The notes under the pieces were generated by a model. It was not told where the DNA came from. It searched no databases and was given only the letters and a program-made list of their open reading frames with translations. Positions 19,620 through 64,000 of a stretch of DNA of 64,000 nt are shown here, piece by piece (within the stretch, counting starts at the first letter, position 1; the number at the start of each line of letters is the position of its first letter). Where the stretch lies: the NCBI GenBank assembly GCA_030141605.1, contig JAQGDQ010000072.1:653672-717671 (forward strand), in the 5' to 3' direction. The translations under genes were made by a program, and so were the position numbers. Source of the stretch: Tubiluchus corallicola (Eukaryota > Priapulida > Priapulimorpha > Priapulimorphida > Tubiluchidae).

Positions 19620-20511
19620 CTTCTATCTGAGAAAGGTATAGGTCCAACTCAAGAGTGAGCAAGAGCCATCGAAGATGCATGAGAGCCGGAAACTTCGGAA
19701 GTTCGTAGCTTCTTAGGACTCATTGGATTCAGTAGCCAATTTATCCCAGATTTCGCTACTATATCGGAGCCGCTTCGCAAGCTAACTCGAAAAGGAGAAC
19801 CATTTGAATTTGGACTAGAACAGAAGGAAGCATTCAAGTTGCTGAAACAAAAGTTGGCAAAAGCTGCTACACTGGCTTATTATGATAAAGATGCACCAAT
19901 TAAAGTCATAGCTGATGCAGGGCCTGTTGGTCTTGGAGCTGTATTGATTCAAAAGAAAGATGGTGACATGCAACCAGTCTGCTATGCAAGTCGTAGTTTG
20001 ACCGCATGTGAGAGAAGATACTCGCAAACGGAGAAAGAGGCTTTAGCACTGGTCTGGGCATGCGAACGATTTCATGCATACGTATATGGATAAAAGTTTG
20101 AACTGTTAACTGACCATAGAGTTTTGCAAACTATTTACGGTCCTAGATCAAAACCATGGTACACGGATAGAACGTTTGGTACTACGGTTGCAACCGTATA
20201 ACTATAAAGTAGTTTACGTGCCAGGACAACAGAACATTGCTGACCCACTATCACGTCTTTTAAGAGTAGAGGATGCCAACAATCATGAACATGGTGCAGA
20301 GGAGTATGTAGGCACAAAATAAAGCCTTCGAACCAAGGTGTGGTGGCCTGGCATGGATAAAGCAGCTACGAAATTTTGCAAGTCATGCCATGGATGTCAA
20401 ATTGTTGCTCGTCCCGATCCGCCAGAACCATTGAGGCCTACGGTATTGCCAGATGGACCATGGCTGGACCTTGCCATTGACTTACTTGGTCCATTACCTT
20501 CTGGTCATTCT
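19620..20511 (+). pseudogene. Ty3/Gypsy retrotransposon pol fragment (RT thumb, RNase H, integrase start)
   Basis: The order is that of Gypsy pol. First comes the end of RT (SEVRSFLGLIGFSSQFIPDF), then RNase H with ADAGPVGLGAVLIQKKDG, YASRSLTACERRYSQTEKEA and LTDHRVLQTI. A tether ending VVYVPGQQNIADPLSRLL follows, and then the integrase zinc finger and core start (VWWPGMDKAATKFCKSCHGC, GPWLDLAIDLLGPLPSGHSI). In-frame stops occur near 19654, 19678 and 20091. A frameshift lies near 20157, and a deletion removes the DNA between the tether and the zinc finger near 20320. No LTRs were found. The fragment stops abruptly at about 20511, where hAT sequence takes over. Confidence 0.85.
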
Positions 20512-48784: not shown

Positions 48785-51058
48785 ATAAAACAGTCGTTCC
48801 CTAACTGAGGAGTTTGTGTAATTATTGCACAACTAAACAGTTTTTGCACTGGATGAAGTTTCACTTTAGCAGGACATTTACAATCGTGGGAGCACAGTCA
48901 TGCACTTAAGCCTTCAATTTATTGAAGTTAAAACACAACCAGAAGAAGAAGAAGAGCTCAATGTGAATGATAAACAAAACGGGCCTAAGTAAATACAGAT
49001 ATGTATTATATCCGATGAAATGGTTTCTACTCTTGCCATCGATATTGATAAATTAGGCGATAGAAGTGAAGGATGTTTCAGTTCCTTTTTCGAAGTACTT
49101 TGTTCTTATTTTAACGATCAGCATTTTGTAAACAACTGCGCTGAGCCGCCTAGATGTTGTTAATTTACTTACTGGTATGATATTGAATGGAATTTAAGCA
49201 AAAACGATTGAAAGGTAAATTACTGCCAAGTAGCTAACTCATTGTACCACTACCAATCAAGATTAAATTTTAATTAGTCTCTCGGTCTTAATTTGCATTG
49301 TTACGTATTAATGCTGATGCAGCAATAATAGGGTACAGAGAAAAATCATTTGAGAGACGAGTTGGCAAAAGACCATACGTGAGACAGATAATCACCTCTA
49401 TCTAACGCTGAAAATTTGGCTGTCCCATGATAATTGATACTTGTATTAGATACTGTTAGTAACCACAGCAGATTACAAAGCTTTGCATTATTATTATGAC
49501 TATTATTAACAGGATACCCACTGCCTAGTTCAATTTACAGTTATCAATTATCGATTACCTATTATCGATCTTACTCAAATTGTCTACTTTTTGATAAAAG
49601 ACTGTCAATTTTACTTAACAACAAAGAGCTCGTCATCGTGAAAACTACCACCAGTGTTTAAAGTGAGCCGGAACCTAAAATTATAAACTCTGCACCAAGA
49701 AATACAATGTCTCGCCAGGTCGCACATTTAGTTTTCTCACCATTTAATTAGAATTAGCTGTAAGCCTATCCGTAACATATACTAGTAGTACAATTTCTGT
49801 CTTTTGGTCAGCAAAATTGAACTGTAGAGAATAACAATTGGCATAAGTAGTTTATTATACTGAGCAGCTGCTACCCCTTCATCTTAATATTCTGCAACTC
49901 ATTTTTCTTGCGAGTTTTTCGGAAAAAAGAAAACTTTCTTGAGAAGAAGTGCACTGGAGTGATGAGTTAAATCATTTTACCTCATAGTAATTTATGTTCC
50001 TTTAGACTTTAAAAATTAGGCGAATTAAATGTAGACTATGGTGCATCAAAATATAGCTGTAATCAGTTGGCATGATTTTCTTTTGCAGAAGTATGGAAAC
50101 ATACAATTCCAGTTTTAAGGAAGAAGTATCTAAATTTCCCACACAAACATCTTATTTGCTAATGTTGACTCAGCCCTTTACATTTTCCTTAACAACAATA
50201 AATGAATAAAGATAGATGGCTTAAGAGATGGAGTAAAGTACATGATGTGCAATTATCACGCAAGCTTGGCTATAAAGCATGTAACCAAATTAGATTGTGA
50301 CTGACCTGTGTTCATGTTAGTATTACATCAGCTGTGTTACAGCACTGCACTACTTTATCTTCACACATAGTGAAACAGTGTTTTCTAATATCAGTCTGAA
50401 GTTTGAAAGTTTAATGGTGCTTTTGCCTTACTTTGTGTTGCAATAAAACTTCTAGAGTGGAGTTTATAGTTTTAGAACATGTCAAGCTTGACACATGCAT
50501 ATATCCCCCGCCCTGAAAACAGTAGAGCTGAGTAGTCTCTTCTAAAAGTCTGTAATGAAAACAACTTAAAACCTTTTAAAAAAAGGTATCTTGATATACA
50601 TTTTGTAATCTTTTATATACTTTGATATGTTGGCAATTTTAATTTAAAAATTAATAAAACCAGTAACAAAATAACATGTAAATGTAGCATATTTTAAATT
50701 TTGTCAGATAGCGTTTTAACATGCTGTGTCTATCCTCATTCAAACAAAAATGAAAAGATCGGATCTTAGAACTTTAAGCAAAATGTGAAATGCATTGATA
50801 TAGGACTAAAACTAAGATAGCAGAACTGGATTGTCAAATTTAATATACAAACTTTCTTTGATTTTTTTTAAAGAAATAATTGCTGAAAATAGTCCTACAG
50901 CTAGATCTCATTTTTCCTCCTCTCTTAATTGTGGGATTTTTTGCTTTAAAATTTTGTTATTGGTGAATTAGTTTCATCAGTCTTAGTTAATTTTTTATCC
51001 TGAAATTAAGTATGTATTATAGGTCTTTCTTAATGCTTACACTTCTCATGTTTTGTAG
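48785..51058. other. Intergenic / upstream intron of adaptor gene
   Basis: AT-rich, with no exon, RNA gene or mobile element that can be supported. It ends in an acceptor (TTTTGTAG at 51058) that probably begins the coding exon of the downstream gene, so the promoter and a 5' noncoding exon may lie here. Confidence 0.4.
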
Positions 51059-51066
51059 GTTGTAAT

Positions 51067-51129
51067 ATGTATGTGTTGCATCCAGTGCTACTGCTTGTGC
51101 TTCCTACTATAGACTGGCCAAAACGCTGA
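51067..51129 (+). promoter_or_regulatory. Upstream open reading frame in adaptor 5' UTR
   Basis: If the exon starts at 51059, the first ATG (51067) opens a 20-codon frame (MYVLHPVLLLV...) closing with TGA at 51129. A second overlapping ATG is at 51071. Both precede the main ATG at 51182 in other frames and could reduce its translation. This depends on the inferred exon start. Confidence 0.35.
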
Positions 51130-51181
51130 TTAAAACTCAAAAAGCTTTTTGGAAACTTGGCACAAAGGAGCCAACAATATA

Positions 51182-53353
51182 ATGTTGTCTGAAGTTACAT
51201 CTCACATTTCGCTTTTCAATGGGATTTGTGTGTTTGCAAGTATCTCTGTGGTTATTTTACTGATATACCTTGCAGCTCTGTGTGCTCGTTGTAAGAAAGG
51301 ACGAGATTCTTCTGCAATAGCATTGACAAATGTGCAAAGTGTGTCTGTTAGCTATGAGCAGACAGAAAATGTGGTGACAGTTGCTGTGCCTGACCACAGT
51401 GCTGCAAATGGACGAACAGTATTAGGTGAATATCAATCGGATTCTTTACAACGTGTACAGAATCAGAGGCAAGTTGATTCTAAACCAAATCGCCGTTTAC
51501 CAGAGCCACCGCCTGGTCGCCCCAATATTCCGCAACCACCCACTCCTGTTGCCACTGGTCAAGATGTACCAGGTTTTTCTGAAAATTTTACACAACCCAC
51601 TCAGGATAACACCTCTGAACTTTACGAGTCTGTGCGTGATGATGTGCTGATCTCATTGGATTTTCATGCCAAACCTGATCCTCCCTATGCTAAAGTGCAA
51701 AAAAGCTTCCACTTCAATCAGTCAAGGGCAAATGAGCATAAAGAAGTGGCTTCTTCATCTGATTCACCTTATTCTAAAGTTGACCCTCCCTATACAAAAG
51801 TAAAGGGTGAAGTATCAGGTGAAGACTCAGCAGGTTATACTGTTGTTAGAGAACCTGCAGCTGACTATGCTGTAGAGGACTTGTATGAAGCTGTAGAAGA
51901 TGAGAATCTGCCTTCTGTGCCAGATAAAAGTTTTATAGTCGATCAGAGTGCGCAGAGTGATAATGAATCTGGTGCTGGCAGCTCCATGTCTGGCTATCCA
52001 CCTGGAATGGTTCCAAACAGCATTTTATCATCTGATTCGAATTCTGCGAGCCAAAACAAAGAAGGTTCCTATTTTAGTATAGGTATACGGGAACCCTTGG
52101 AAAATTTAAAAGCCAGAGAGGAAGCTAGACGTAAAGAGGAAGCGCAGAAACTGTTAGAACGGCAGCAAAGCGGCATAAATCAAAACACAATAGTCACAGA
52201 TGAAGAGCATTATTATACAACTGTTTCTAATGACTATCCAGACAATGGATATTCACAGGTGGAATGTGAAGATCAAGATCATCAGAACTTTAACGCTGCC
52301 ACAAGTAGGATAGAACGTACAGGTAGTGGCTCCGCGAGCGAGTTGTATGCTGAAATCGACAAAACGTCAGAAACTGAGTCAAATAGAAGTTCATTGTATG
52401 CAAAAGTGAATTATAGTCAAGTACGAAGCACTTCTGTAGGCGAAAATCCCATAGCTGTTAACAGACTTGATCATCTTATTACTTTTGATAATAATTCTAA
52501 TGCTTTTGATAACAACATTACTGTCCCAGCACTGAGTGCTGTGCCTGCAAGTGACAAGGCAGCTAAAGAAGATGTATCTGATCTGTATGCAGTAGTCGAT
52601 TTGAAAAAGAAAGCTAGAACTCGTGCTGCTAAACAAAGACCAATATCTGAACCTAACTTTGATCGACCCGCACATGAATTACCTAACTTTGAGCTGCCTT
52701 TACTTGACGTCTACACCGGGGGTGCACGACCTAAAATCCCTCCTAATAATTTCCTGTCAGATCGTAGCAGCAGTAGACGTGATGATGATCCTGGCTATGA
52801 AAGTATTTCTAACGAAGAAGTTTTTGTGACAAATATCACAGAAACAAAAAATAAGGGCGATTATAACAGTGATAGTTACATTGATAAAACGGGAAGTTTA
52901 ACACGACATGTTAGTGGGGCATTGTCGTGCTCATCAGTTTCAATAACTTATATTGATGATGATGATGGTGACGATGAAAAAACTGATCAAGGAGATGATG
53001 ATCCTAATTATAGTAAACTTGGTGAGCCATCTTTAAAAGTTGTGAGTGATGCTCAGCACTCTCGTCAAAGCAGCTTGAATTATGAAGAATCGTGGCAAAG
53101 ACTAGAAAAGAATCCGGAAATTCATCACGGTTTGGTTCACATCAGTAGTCATAAGCCAAGCCCAAACTTATGGAAAAGGAAAGAGCACATATATCAAGAA
53201 CTTGATAGCTGTGAACTGAAAAAGAGTAATAAAAAGAAGAAAAGGGAAGAGCACAGTCAGCATATGTTTGACTGGCTAAAGCGAGATGGCGGAAAGCATA
53301 GAAAACACCATTCTTCTAGTGATGATGATTTTAGAGAATGTACAAAATTTTAA
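51182..53353 (+). CDS. Transmembrane adaptor with many tyrosine motifs, Cbp/PAG-like architecture
   Basis: One uninterrupted frame encodes 723 residues. The first ATG is at 51182; the frame is open further upstream from a TTG. A short extracellular N-terminus and a single membrane segment (about 13-34, ICVFASISVVILLIYLAAL) are followed at once by CARCKKGR, a likely palmitoylation pair (C34, C37) plus basic stop-transfer residues. The rest is a long disordered cytoplasmic tail. It has a proline-rich SH3-type stretch (RRLPEPPPGRP, 104-114) and about twenty candidate phosphotyrosines: Y148 ESV, Y169 AKV, Y197 SKV, Y204 TKV, Y219 TVV, Y235 EAV, Y357 SQV, Y389 AEI, Y406 AKV, Y411 SQV, Y469 AVV, Y539 ESI, Y610 SKL, Y671 QEL. 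A charged helix (306-329), a lysine-rich segment (680-690) and a possible PDZ-binding end (TKF) complete it. Vertebrate PAG1/Cbp has the same plan, but sequence similarity is weak, so the match may be convergent. Confidence 0.85.
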   Translation: MLSEVTSHISLFNGICVFASISVVILLIYLAALCARCKKGRDSSAIALTNVQSVSVSYEQTENVVTVAVPDHSAANGRTVLGEYQSDSLQRVQNQRQVDSKPNRRLPEPPPGRPNIPQPPTPVATGQDVPGFSENFTQPTQDNTSELYESVRDDVLISLDFHAKPDPPYAKVQKSFHFNQSRANEHKEVASSSDSPYSKVDPPYTKVKGEVSGEDSAGYTVVREPAADYAVEDLYEAVEDENLPSVPDKSFIVDQSAQSDNESGAGSSMSGYPPGMVPNSILSSDSNSASQNKEGSYFSIGIREPLENLKAREEARRKEEAQKLLERQQSGINQNTIVTDEEHYYTTVSNDYPDNGYSQVECEDQDHQNFNAATSRIERTGSGSASELYAEIDKTSETESNRSSLYAKVNYSQVRSTSVGENPIAVNRLDHLITFDNNSNAFDNNITVPALSAVPASDKAAKEDVSDLYAVVDLKKKARTRAAKQRPISEPNFDRPAHELPNFELPLLDVYTGGARPKIPPNNFLSDRSSSRRDDDPGYESISNEEVFVTNITETKNKGDYNSDSYIDKTGSLTRHVSGALSCSSVSITYIDDDDGDDEKTDQGDDDPNYSKLGEPSLKVVSDAQHSRQSSLNYEESWQRLEKNPEIHHGLVHISSHKPSPNLWKRKEHIYQELDSCELKKSNKKKKREEHSQHMFDWLKRDGGKHRKHHSSSDDDFRECTKF

Positions 53354-59255: not shown

Positions 59256-59402
59256 CTTTCAGAAAAAATATTCACCTATTATTTCAGATTTTGACAGAAC
59301 TGAGGTATTGTATTAGTAATAGTAAGGACTAGTAGGAGGCACTAATGGAATGGAAGTGAAGGTCAGCAAGTAATGCTGTGTCTGGTTATTACTTAATAAA
59401 AA

Positions 59403-61847
59403 ACTCTGGCAATTGCTGAATTTTAAGCAAAAATTTCCAAAAACATAAATAAAACAAAAATAATTTCTCTAAAAATTATTTTTGATATTTGACAGAATTA
59501 CAAACCATAACATCATCGTAGTCGTCATCATCGTCATCTTCGTTGTCATCGTCATTCTCATCATCGTCATCATCAGGCTCAGGCAATTCATCATCATCCT
59601 GTAGCTCAGCTAAAAGAGCAGTCTGCCGGCAGGAGTCCAATAAATCATTATCTGAATCACTGACACAAATAACATAGTTATAATTTACCCTTTTAGATAC
59701 AACTTTGTATTTCCATCAAATAGCAATGAATCTTATTCTAAAGCTTGACATCGTGAGCTGATTAAAACAATCTCAGTTAGCTATAACATCCTACAATGCA
59801 TCATACATCAAACACACACACATTAAGTGAAGCGTGACTTTCAAAGCAAATTGTTCACAGTAACAAGAACAATAACAATGCAAGTACATACTAGACATGC
59901 TATTCCAGAAAATAAAAATCAAATTAAATAAACACAGTAACACAGTATAAAAGACGCAAGTGTTCACAATCTCACCTAGATGTAGTCGAGGCAAGACTCA
60001 TTGTGAGTGCTTGGGACAAAGTGGTACCACCACTGGCAGCTACACTTGGTGCTTGAGAATTCTGCTGACTATTTGTTGTATTGAGACTGGGGAAACTTTG
60101 AGCTGTACTGAGAGGTCCTGCAATGTTGAATATATCATAAGTAAAAACACACACAAAAATGCATAGTAAAAAATTAGCACGAGCAAAAATTTTATTAAGT
60201 AAGCATTTTGGTGACAAGCTAACAAACTTAAGTGGCAAAAACTCATCTTAATTTTAACCAGTTTTAGAACTATAGCTACAACCTATCTATTGAATACAGA
60301 TCTGTTAAAAATTGCTAACATACCCTCGCCAGGTAGGTTAGAAGACAAAGCAAGTCGAACAAGGCTGCTAGCATTATTTGCTCCACGAGTCAAAGCCATG
60401 TTGTTGACAGAATTATTTGGTGCATTACCAGACTGTCGGCGACGTGCAGCAGCTGCAAAGGTCTCCAACAAGCTCACAGTTGCTTCCAAGCTACTCGACA
60501 AATTCGGTACAGAGACACTCATTGGACTGCCTCCACCGCGGCTGGATGATGAAGTTGATGTTGGAGTGGTGCCATCACCCCTCTTGCTTGAGCCACTTGG
60601 AGGTATTTTCTCACGGCGTTTCTCACTGATTCTCTTCAGCAGCGTTTTTTCTTCATTACGACGCTGATGGTGCTCATGTGTGGACATTAGTGAAGAGGCA
60701 TAGGATGATTCTAGCAACTTATTAGGTGGTGTCGGTACTGCTGCTGCTGCTGCTCCTGAAAAGTTGATCAAAGTTATTTAAATGATTTTTTTTATACAAA
60801 TCAAATTGACAAACATTATTTAACTACTGGCTAACTACCACAGGTCTTAGGTGACACAAAAGTCTCACATCCATTTTCCTTAATTTTTGTTCCTATCAAG
60901 GTAATAAGTAACAGATAACTGACTACTATAACTTTACAACGTACCGGACTCATCTGCTGTTTGCACTAGCACAGCGGTTTCAGTATTAACAGAGGTAGCT
61001 GTTGCATTTTGTGGCTCTTCTCCCGAATCAACAGTCACAGTAACTAGGGCTTCAGCACTCGCTAAATTCAATACCGATTCTGCCACGGCCTCAGCTGCCT
61101 CCTGTAGAATAAAAGTTTCTTTTAAAATCATTTTTTAAAGCGACTATGTATTTAAAAATAACCTTCTCTTGTCTATCATTTCAACAGCCATTTTCAATGG
61201 TTTCTGCTTAATCATCTTTTTTTCTACTTTGTTTGGCACCAGTAATAAGATTTTAATGACAGATCAGCATTTCCCTCCAAAGTTTTCTAGCCAAATTCTA
61301 TTATAGCACCTTTGATGTAACTTTAGATGGTAGACTATCAGCAGATGCCGCTTGCTCAGTGGCAGCAACAGAGGATACACCTTTCTTCTCCATGGCTTCA
61401 GGTAAACTTGGAGTGGAGCTGCTCTTACTGCGGCTAGAAGAAAGTACTGGTATTTTGCCTAATGCATCGGCCCTGCGAATATTGCCTGCAAAGACAACCA
61501 ACATTTTTTCACTCTCAGCTCCTTAGAAATTCAAAAAAGGGCTGCAACTCTTGACAAACATCTTTCTCTAAAACAATCAAATCCAACATCTTTCTCTAAA
61601 ACAATCAAATCCTTTTTAGTTTAAAAATTTAATGCAAGAATTTTCACCAGTGTTACATTTTTCTTTGTAATGCACTGTCTTTGCAGATTTAAAATAAAAC
61701 CTTCAAAAATTCTTAGTACCAGATAAGCGCACAAATATTAGCAGTCTTAAACATCAATAGCCGCTACAGAAGAGCCATAGTTGCAATAGCAACAGTAACA
61801 ACTGCAACGACAATACAGGCAATGACAGCAGGCACAGTGAAAACAAT
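59403..61847. repeat. Tandem segmental duplication, copy 1
   Basis: 2445-bp unit carrying five HECTD1 exons. It repeats directly from 61848 to the window end. Differences seen are one GCT unit in an alanine run (copy 1 has one more) and a T/C difference in an intron (TTTCCCTCC against TTCCCCTCC). Confidence 0.95.
59506..61485 (-). pseudogene. HECTD1: HECTD1 internal exons, copy 1 (partial gene)
   Basis: HECTD1 is a large HECT-type E3 ubiquitin ligase. Minus-strand exons: 61485-61310, 61101-60945, 60755-60324, 60117-59976 and 59659-59506, with agreeing phases among themselves. They encode the low-complexity region before the HECT domain: GNIRRADALGKIPVLSSSRS; EAAEAVAESVLNLASAEALV; an Ala run then HEHHQRRNEEKTLLKRISEK and SPMSVSVPNLSSSLEATVSL; AQSFPSLNTTNS; and SDSDNDLLDSCRQTALLAEL with an acidic tail DDDELPEPDDDDDEND. 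The last block is the diagnostic LDSCR...LLAELDDDEDLPEP region of HECTD1. No later exons (HECT domain) occur between here and the adaptor gene. Joining this copy after copy 2 breaks the frame, so it is called a partial or broken copy, although an assembly error could make it the only real one. Confidence 0.75.
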
Positions 61848-64000
61848 ACTCTGGCAATTGCTGAATTTTAAGCAAAAATTTCCAAAAACATAAATAAAAC
61901 AAAAATAATTTCTCTAAAAATTATTTTTGATATTTGACAGAATTACAAACCATAACATCATCGTAGTCGTCATCATCGTCATCTTCGTTGTCATCGTCAT
62001 TCTCATCATCGTCATCATCAGGCTCAGGCAATTCATCATCATCCTGTAGCTCAGCTAAAAGAGCAGTCTGCCGGCAGGAGTCCAATAAATCATTATCTGA
62101 ATCACTGACACAAATAACATAGTTATAATTTACCCTTTTAGATACAACTTTGTATTTCCATCAAATAGCAATGAATCTTATTCTAAAGCTTGACATCGTG
62201 AGCTGATTAAAACAATCTCAGTTAGCTATAACATCCTACAATGCATCATACATCAAACACACACACATTAAGTGAAGCGTGACTTTCAAAGCAAATTGTT
62301 CACAGTAACAAGAACAATAACAATGCAAGTACATACTAGACATGCTATTCCAGAAAATAAAAATCAAATTAAATAAACACAGTAACACAGTATAAAAGAC
62401 GCAAGTGTTCACAATCTCACCTAGATGTAGTCGAGGCAAGACTCATTGTGAGTGCTTGGGACAAAGTGGTACCACCACTGGCAGCTACACTTGGTGCTTG
62501 AGAATTCTGCTGACTATTTGTTGTATTGAGACTGGGGAAACTTTGAGCTGTACTGAGAGGTCCTGCAATGTTGAATATATCATAAGTAAAAACACACACA
62601 AAAATGCATAGTAAAAAATTAGCACGAGCAAAAATTTTATTAAGTAAGCATTTTGGTGACAAGCTAACAAACTTAAGTGGCAAAAACTCATCTTAATTTT
62701 AACCAGTTTTAGAACTATAGCTACAACCTATCTATTGAATACAGATCTGTTAAAAATTGCTAACATACCCTCGCCAGGTAGGTTAGAAGACAAAGCAAGT
62801 CGAACAAGGCTGCTAGCATTATTTGCTCCACGAGTCAAAGCCATGTTGTTGACAGAATTATTTGGTGCATTACCAGACTGTCGGCGACGTGCAGCAGCTG
62901 CAAAGGTCTCCAACAAGCTCACAGTTGCTTCCAAGCTACTCGACAAATTCGGTACAGAGACACTCATTGGACTGCCTCCACCGCGGCTGGATGATGAAGT
63001 TGATGTTGGAGTGGTGCCATCACCCCTCTTGCTTGAGCCACTTGGAGGTATTTTCTCACGGCGTTTCTCACTGATTCTCTTCAGCAGCGTTTTTTCTTCA
63101 TTACGACGCTGATGGTGCTCATGTGTGGACATTAGTGAAGAGGCATAGGATGATTCTAGCAACTTATTAGGTGGTGTCGGTACTGCTGCTGCTGCTCCTG
63201 AAAAGTTGATCAAAGTTATTTAAATGATTTTTTTTATACAAATCAAATTGACAAACATTATTTAACTACTGGCTAACTACCACAGGTCTTAGGTGACACA
63301 AAAGTCTCACATCCATTTTCCTTAATTTTTGTTCCTATCAAGGTAATAAGTAACAGATAACTGACTACTATAACTTTACAACGTACCGGACTCATCTGCT
63401 GTTTGCACTAGCACAGCGGTTTCAGTATTAACAGAGGTAGCTGTTGCATTTTGTGGCTCTTCTCCCGAATCAACAGTCACAGTAACTAGGGCTTCAGCAC
63501 TCGCTAAATTCAATACCGATTCTGCCACGGCCTCAGCTGCCTCCTGTAGAATAAAAGTTTCTTTTAAAATCATTTTTTAAAGCGACTATGTATTTAAAAA
63601 TAACCTTCTCTTGTCTATCATTTCAACAGCCATTTTCAATGGTTTCTGCTTAATCATCTTTTTTTCTACTTTGTTTGGCACCAGTAATAAGATTTTAATG
63701 ACAGATCAGCATTCCCCTCCAAAGTTTTCTAGCCAAATTCTATTATAGCACCTTTGATGTAACTTTAGATGGTAGACTATCAGCAGATGCCGCTTGCTCA
63801 GTGGCAGCAACAGAGGATACACCTTTCTTCTCCATGGCTTCAGGTAAACTTGGAGTGGAGCTGCTCTTACTGCGGCTAGAAGAAAGTACTGGTATTTTGC
63901 CTAATGCATCGGCCCTGCGAATATTGCCTGCAAAGACAACCAACATTTTTTCACTCTCAGCTCCTTAGAAATTCAAAAAAGGGCTGCAACTCTTGACAAA
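61848..64000. repeat. Tandem segmental duplication, copy 2 (truncated by window end)
   Basis: Repeats 59403-61558 almost base for base. It begins at ACTCTGGCAATTGCTG; the DNA just before each copy differs, which fixes the breakpoint. Confidence 0.95.
61951..63927 (-). CDS. HECTD1: HECTD1 internal exons, copy 2 (gene continues beyond window)
   Basis: Exons on the minus strand: 63927-63752, 63543-63387, 63197-62769, 62562-62421 and 62104-61951. They encode the same protein segment as copy 1, with one alanine fewer in the GAAAA run. Being upstream on the minus strand, this copy would be transcribed first, and it is contiguous with whatever HECTD1 sequence lies to the right of the window. The segment sits between the Mib-HERC2/SUN-like middle and the HECT domain in the family and is disordered and Ser/Thr-rich; the acidic tract ends the last exon. 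Neither the N-terminal ankyrin repeats nor the catalytic HECT domain is visible here. Confidence 0.85.

What the first reader, a model, noticed from the sequence alone, without database searches (positions are those of the whole stretch)
51182..53353. Cbp/PAG-like membrane scaffold with an array of Csk-SH2-type tyrosine motifs
The protein has a minimal ectodomain, one TM, a CxxC palmitoylation site and a long disordered tail. At least nine sites fit Y-[AST]-x-[VI] (Y169, Y197, Y204, Y219, Y357, Y389, Y406, Y411, Y469), and one more is YSKL (Y610). The published Csk SH2 preference is pY-[TAS]-[KRQN]-[MIVR]; Y169, Y197, Y204, Y357, Y406 and Y411 fit it fully. Cbp/PAG is described mainly in vertebrates, so an independent or ancestral equivalent in this animal would be new.
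Basis: partly seen in the sequence, partly recalled or inferred. Interest (0 to 1): 0.8.

Follow-up and report, generated by a model that had tools for sequence, protein, structure and literature searches.

The report
Invertebrate relative of PAG/Cbp scaffold
This gene most likely encodes an invertebrate version of PAG/Cbp, a membrane-anchored scaffold known from mammals that parks the enzyme Csk next to Src kinases to switch them off, which would mean this brake on Src is older than the vertebrates.

Summary
51182-53353 (+) encodes 723 residues: 13-residue ectodomain, one TM, CARC, long tail. An upstream in-frame stop argues against missing ectodomain exons. PAG (PF15347) is the only Pfam family matched by the first 105 residues (E 0.0022, 17.6 bits, cut-off 27). 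Against human PAG1, recalled from memory, the N-terminus scores z 6.4 (0 of 3,000 shuffles); recalled LAT and NTAL give 1.2 and 1.7. The genome holds Csk with the key SH2 glutamate, a Src-like tail exon and a six-PDZ NHERF-like protein. By recalled markers the host is an invertebrate bilaterian. Against: Pfam score below cut-off; one shuffle reached E 0.001 for another family; tyrosine order not conserved; C-terminus TKF, not TRL; no full Src recovered; no second species, no experiments. Verdict: probable divergent PAG homologue with an enlarged Csk-motif array.

The parts
51182..53353 (+). Coding exon of the PAG-like protein, 723 aa plus stop
   Evidence: the genome search lists only this place
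51182..51220 (+). Short predicted ectodomain, residues 1-13
   Evidence: in register with PAG profile positions 8 onward
51221..51280 (+). Single transmembrane segment, residues 14-33
   Evidence: Hydropathy; helix 2-43 in the model
51281..51292 (+). CARC, juxtamembrane CxxC (putative palmitoylation), residues 34-37
   Evidence: palmitoylation not tested
51491..51544 (+). Proline-rich stretch RRLPEPPPGRPNIPQPPT with the one [RK]xxPxxP class I SH3 ligand, residues 104-121
   Evidence: aligned with RELPRIPP of recalled PAG1
51623..51634 (+). Y148 YESV, Src-SH2-like site
51686..51697 (+). Y169 YAKV, full Csk preference
51770..51781 (+). Y197 YSKV, full Csk preference
51791..51802 (+). Y204 YTKV, full Csk preference
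51836..51847 (+). Y219 YTVV, Y-[AST]-x-[VI]
51884..51895 (+). Y235 YEAV, Src-SH2-like site
52214..52225 (+).
52250..52261 (+). Y357 YSQV, full Csk preference
52346..52357 (+). Y389 YAEI
52397..52408 (+). Y406 YAKV, full Csk preference
52412..52423 (+). Y411 YSQV, full Csk preference
52586..52597 (+). Y469 YAVV
52796..52807 (+). Y539 YESI, Src-SH2-like; resembles YESI near the C-terminus of recalled PAG1
53009..53020 (+). Y610 YSKL
53339..53350 (+). C-terminal CTKF, form of a class I PDZ ligand
   Evidence: sequence only
51131..51133 (+). In-frame TAA upstream of the ATG
51057..51058 (+). Candidate splice-acceptor AG (15 of 20 pyrimidines upstream); the stretch to the ATG would be 5' UTR
51111..51112 (+). 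Candidate splice-acceptor AG (15 of 20 pyrimidines upstream); the stretch to the ATG would be 5' UTR

Best explanation
It is a divergent invertebrate homologue of PAG/Cbp and works as a membrane scaffold for Src control. Anatomy (shown): tiny ectodomain, one TM, CxxC, class I proline ligand, long tail with 16 YxxPhi sites, C-terminal T-K-F. Mechanism (inferred from PAG): palmitoylation holds it in ordered membrane. A Src-family kinase docks through RRLPEPP and the YE[SA][VI] sites and phosphorylates the tail. The pY-[AST]-[KRQN]-V sites recruit cytosolic Csk through its SH2 domain, and Csk then phosphorylates the Src tail tyrosine and shuts it off. Six near-ideal Csk sites would make Csk recruitment multivalent and graded. 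The C-terminus may link it to a NHERF-type PDZ protein and the cell cortex.
For: Residues 1-105: PAG is the only Pfam family matched, E 0.0022, residues 2-88 to profile 8-96. Four other N-terminal fragments and the 75-residue one also match PAG, E 0.0042-0.019. 0 of 20 segment-preserving shuffles match PAG. BLASTP to recalled human PAG1 (a one-sequence database): E 1e-5 over residues 1-111, reaching the RxLPxxP motif, with a colinear second piece 393-523 (E 0.027). N-terminal score z 6.4 to PAG1, against 1.2 to LAT and 1.7 to NTAL, all three recalled. The juxtamembrane part alone also exceeds most shuffles (18 of 3,000 reach it). Motif enrichment. Host Csk (L002) is SH3-SH2-kinase, its SH2-kinase part 56% identical to recalled human Csk, and keeps E in KVEHYRI, the position I map by recalled numbering to Glu127, said to set Csk against Chk SH2 specificity (PMC10016382 passages). 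Src-like tail exon ends ...DDTQYKDAEIVAS (L015). NHERF-like six-PDZ protein (L011). PAG has 10 tyrosines, two proline-rich regions and a C-terminal VTRL for EBP50 (PMC4861716 passages).
Against: The full-length protein has no Pfam hit, and the best fragment score (17.6 bits) is below the PAG cut-off of 27. Shuffled controls hit some other family in 18 of 20 cases and once at E 0.001, better than the real match, so the E-value alone is weak. The order of tyrosine sites is no better conserved with PAG1 than after permutation (n>=obs 1335, 2289 and 1889 of 5,000 at three settings). The other six BLASTP pieces to PAG1 are weak (E 0.29-8.9) and some are out of order. The C-terminus is TKF, not TRL. 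The protein is 723 aa against 432. The PAG profile found nothing in the genome six-frame search (it rang in none of the 14 control genomes either). No full-length Src was recovered: the best match of a Src query was Csk itself, and the Src-like label rests on one C-terminal exon. No second species, transcript or binding data.
Confidence: 0.7

Rival explanations
1. A convergent transmembrane adaptor: same architecture and use (SH2 docking, possibly Csk), but no common descent with PAG.
For: The Pfam score is below cut-off, one of 20 shuffles reached a better E-value for another family, and tyrosine order is not conserved. TM plus CxxC plus tyrosine-rich tail is a simple design shared by LAT and NTAL.
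Against: N-terminal similarity is specific to PAG1 and not seen with LAT or NTAL, and it extends past the TM to the RxLPxxP motif. The register from the Pfam profile (residue 2 at position 8) and from recalled PAG1 (residue 1 at position 7) agree.
Confidence: 0.18
2. A scaffold whose main readers are SH2 proteins other than Csk, such as SHP-type phosphatases (ITIM-like) or the SHARK-type dual-SH2 kinase.
For: Three sites fit [SIVL]xYxx[ILV] (Y197, Y406, Y411). A SHARK-type kinase exists (L003).
Against: No ITAM, ITSM, YxN, YxxM or YxxP site. A/S/T at +1 with K/R/Q/N at +2 is what the Csk preference (recalled) predicts. This could coexist with Csk recruitment.
Confidence: 0.15
3. Tail of an adhesion receptor whose ectodomain exons lie upstream.
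For: Candidate splice acceptors exist just upstream (AGs ending at 51058 and 51112).
Against: TAA at 51131 is in frame between both good acceptors and the ATG; the three AGs after it have only 7-10 of 20 pyrimidines upstream. The PAG match starts at the natural N-terminus.
Confidence: 0.04

Closest known systems
[quoted passage not shown] PF15347)
   Same: Short ectodomain, TM, CxxC, RxLPxxP proline ligand, many YxxPhi sites of Y[AST]x[VI] and YE[ATS][VI] type, C-terminus of class I PDZ form; N-terminal sequence similarity in register.
   Different: 723 instead of 432 residues (recalled PAG1); ten Y[AST]x[VI] sites against four in recalled PAG1, and six with K/R/Q/N at +2 against none (PAG1 counted by eye on the windows printed); CxxC shifted by three residues in the alignment; extra predicted helices 306-330 and 661-703 (low-confidence single-sequence model); CTKF instead of a TRL end.
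LAT and NTAL (other transmembrane adaptors)
   Same: Short ectodomain, TM, CxxC, tyrosine-rich tail.
   Different: No sequence similarity clearly above shuffles (recalled sequences); no YxN (Grb2) sites here.

Membership tests
PAG/Cbp | Very short ectodomain and single TM | tested here: met
PAG/Cbp | Juxtamembrane CxxC palmitoylation motif | tested here: met
   CARC at 34-37; modification itself not tested
PAG/Cbp | Proline-rich SH3 ligands (two regions) | tested here: met
   RRLPEPP at 104, the only class I ligand; one P..P.[RK] form at 244; further PxxP near 107-119 and at 165 and 517. Binding not tested
PAG/Cbp | About ten tyrosines in SH2-ligand contexts, including a Csk site | tested here: met
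   16 YxxPhi sites, 10 Y[AST]x[VI]
PAG/Cbp | C-terminal VTRL-type PDZ ligand for EBP50 | tested here: inconclusive
   Ends CTKF, class I form but not TRL; a NHERF-like protein exists
PAG/Cbp | Score above the Pfam PF15347 cut-off (an operational test, not a biological feature) | tested here: not met
   17.6 bits at best, cut-off 27; only family hit for that fragment. For this reason it is called a probable homologue, not a certified member
PAG/Cbp | Sequence homology to PAG1 | tested here: met
   BLASTP E 1e-5, z 6.4, 0 of 3,000 shuffles, with PAG1 recalled from memory
PAG/Cbp | Binds Csk SH2 when phosphorylated | not testable with these tools
   Host Csk SH2 keeps the Glu127-equivalent
PAG/Cbp | Located in detergent-resistant membrane | not testable with these tools
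   none
LAT/NTAL | Sequence similarity and Grb2 YxN sites | tested here: not met
   (LAT and NTAL recalled)

The most novel reading that the evidence does not exclude
PAG/Cbp is an ancient bilaterian Src brake that predates lymphocytes, and in this lineage it is a multivalent Csk-gathering scaffold with six near-ideal Csk sites, where recalled human PAG1 has none with K/R/Q/N at +2 and relies mainly on Y317.
Probability: 0.45. Interest if true: 0.65.

Novelty: new member of a known kind. Interest (0 to 1): 0.52.

Why it matters
Csk is a cytoplasmic enzyme that must be brought to the membrane to act on Src kinases. How that happens in invertebrates I found in none of the rows listed by ten paper searches nor in the passages seen of eight papers. 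A PAG homologue in an invertebrate bilaterian would move this module back before adaptive immunity and offer a simple animal in which to test whether the number of Csk sites sets the threshold for Src inhibition.

Tried and rejected
Receptor tail with missing exons: rejected because of the in-frame stop. Recent tandem duplication as source of the motif array: not seen. ITAM, Grb2, PI3K and Crk scaffolds: no sites. Conserved order of tyrosine sites with PAG1 as a proof of orthology: tested and not significant. PDB sequence search: 0 matches up to E 10. A COX1 search to name the host by its mitochondrial code found nothing. A multi-exon gene on contig C663, first thought to be Src, looks Abl-like by recall. 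The PAG1 mention in an anemone paper was a different symbol, PAG15 (PMC6662555 passages).

Full report
OBSERVATION. The frame at 51182-53353 (+) encodes 723 residues. Ten Y-[AST]-x-[VI] sites and six full Csk-preference sites are present, against shuffle means of 0.73 and 0.24, with 0 of 20,000 shuffles reaching either count. Among the 16 YxxPhi sites of the tail, A/S/T at +1 (11 of 16) and then K/R/Q/N at +2 (7 of 11) are each enriched. There is no YxN, YxxM, YxxP, ITAM or ITSM site; three sites fit a loose ITIM. TRF lists only two short arrays, so the motif array is not a recent tandem. A search of the genome with the protein at E up to 10 listed only the gene itself (8 candidates scored).

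GENE START. The nearest upstream in-frame stop is TAA at 51131. The two AGs with a good pyrimidine tract, ending at 51058 and 51112 (15 of 20 each), lie before it; the three AGs after it have only 7-10 of 20 pyrimidines. An upstream ectodomain exon is therefore unlikely, and 51182 is the probable start. No transcript was available.

FOLD. A single-sequence AlphaFold2 run gives a helix at 2-43 (pLDDT 92-95 as block means for residues 11-30), helices at 306-330 and 661-703 and shorter ones, and pLDDT under 50 for 577 of 723 residues (mean 41.8). This is compatible with a TM and a disordered tail, but a single-sequence run cannot prove disorder.

FAMILY. The full-length protein has no Pfam match, no PDB match, and the PAG profile finds nothing in the genome in six frames (which also rang in none of its 14 control genomes). 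Fragments tell more: 46, 60, 75, 105, 155 and 245 residues from the N-terminus all match PAG, at E 0.013, 0.019, 0.013, 0.0022, 0.0042 and 0.019; PAG is the only family in five of the six, the 46-residue fragment also having a weaker hit at E 0.34. The 105-residue match covers residues 2-88 at profile 8-96. The seven fragments tried from further down the protein did not match PAG (five, two). Controls: 20 shuffles that keep the ectodomain, TM, juxtamembrane and tail compositions gave 0 PAG matches, but 18 of 20 matched some family, and one reached E 0.001 (DUF7299), better than the real match. So the E-value alone is weak; what counts is that the family was named beforehand and matches in register from residue 2.

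COMPARISON WITH PAG1. Its ten tyrosines include 105 and 317, and published accounts give ten tyrosines, Y105 and Y317 (PMC4861716 and PMC3167820 passages). BLASTP, against a database of this one sequence, gives E 1e-5 for residues 1-111, ending at RRLPEPPP opposite RELPRIPP, and a second colinear piece (393-523, E 0.027); six more pieces have E 0.29-8.9 and some are out of order. The N-terminal score exceeds all of 3,000 shuffles (z 6.4); recalled LAT and NTAL give z 1.2 and 1.7; the part after the TM (34-111) is reached by 18 of 3,000 shuffles and the first 41 residues by 3 of 3,000. The tail from residue 42 is reached by 22 of 1,000. Whole-protein alignments (two local settings, one global), with the TM fixed and tyrosine cores kept but permuted, were reached by 13, 4 and 4 of 500. 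Against: the order of individual tyrosine windows is not better than permuted order (1335, 2289 and 1889 of 5,000).

PARTNERS IN THE GENOME. Csk: one open frame of 497 residues at C2218 with SH3, SH2 and kinase. The SH2-kinase part is 56% identical to recalled human Csk. Its SH2 reads SKVEHYRI; I map this E, by recall of numbering, to Glu127, which a review names as the residue that mainly distinguishes Csk from Chk SH2 specificity (PMC10016382 passages). Src-like: exon L015 ends in ...STDDTQYKDAEIVAS, a tail tyrosine in Src position; its neighbouring exons were not followed. A longer Src query at E 1e-30 returned ten places with Csk as the best and no obvious Src, so the Src-like label rests on this exon. 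NHERF-like: six PDZ domains in a 957-residue frame (L011); the name is by similarity to a recalled NHERF1 query (41% at best place).

HOST. A SH2-ankyrin-SH2-kinase (SHARK type, L003), which I recall as absent from vertebrates, and Hox homeodomains including one with an UbdA/Lox-like flank (L023) and a posterior type (L028) point to an invertebrate bilaterian, perhaps a protostome. These labels are recalled, and the species is unknown.

MECHANISM. In mammals PAG is palmitoylated and raft-located, is phosphorylated by Src-family kinases, recruits Csk through pY317 and thereby inhibits Src kinases; it can also hold Src kinases open or sequester them (PMC3968143, PMC3469622 and PMC3167820 passages). 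The sequence parts for the same scheme are present here. Every functional step here is inference; the anatomy, and the presence of Csk, a Src-like tail exon and a NHERF-like protein, are shown.

NOVELTY. Ten paper searches ran; most lists were capped. None of the rows listed is, by title and abstract start, about an invertebrate PAG. One held paper has both 'phosphoprotein associated with glycosphingolipid' and 'invertebrate' (PMC2747914, a Gab review; seen in the listing only). Of eight papers I saw passages only. Subscription journals and protein databases were not searched, so an automatic annotation elsewhere may exist. I rate it a new member of a known kind, with an enlarged Csk-motif array.

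On holding the report against the calls I added the missing full-length Src, the weak out-of-order BLASTP pieces and the seven fragments without a PAG match, and corrected the number of upstream exons scanned.

Noticed in passing
window 23166-46583 (+): Multi-exon gene upstream that looks like CACHD1 by recall (no Pfam hit at E 0.01 for the five of its exons tried); a JAK-like two-kinase frame lies on the same contig at C984:570291-571964 (-), about 105 kb from the first exon noted, recalling the JAK1-CACHD1 neighbourhood of human chromosome 1.
   Followed up: partly
window 59395-63482: Direct duplication at 2,442-2,445 bases spacing, near-identical copies (two 300-base families at 99-100%).
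   Followed up: partly
L016, L017, L018: Three long single open frames on different contigs with several hydrophobic segments followed by a tyrosine-kinase-type domain and a similar C-terminal SGY[EQ]SLSDY tail (Pfam confirms the kinase in L016, the only one of the three scanned).
   Followed up: no
L002, L003, L011, and the JAK-like frame at C984:570291-571964: Several signalling genes of this animal sit in a single long open frame (Csk 497, SHARK-type 675, six-PDZ 957, JAK-like 1190 residues open).
   Followed up: no
window 19683-20093 (+): Reverse-transcriptase RNase H fragment of a retroelement (PF17919 E 1.7e-30).
   Followed up: no
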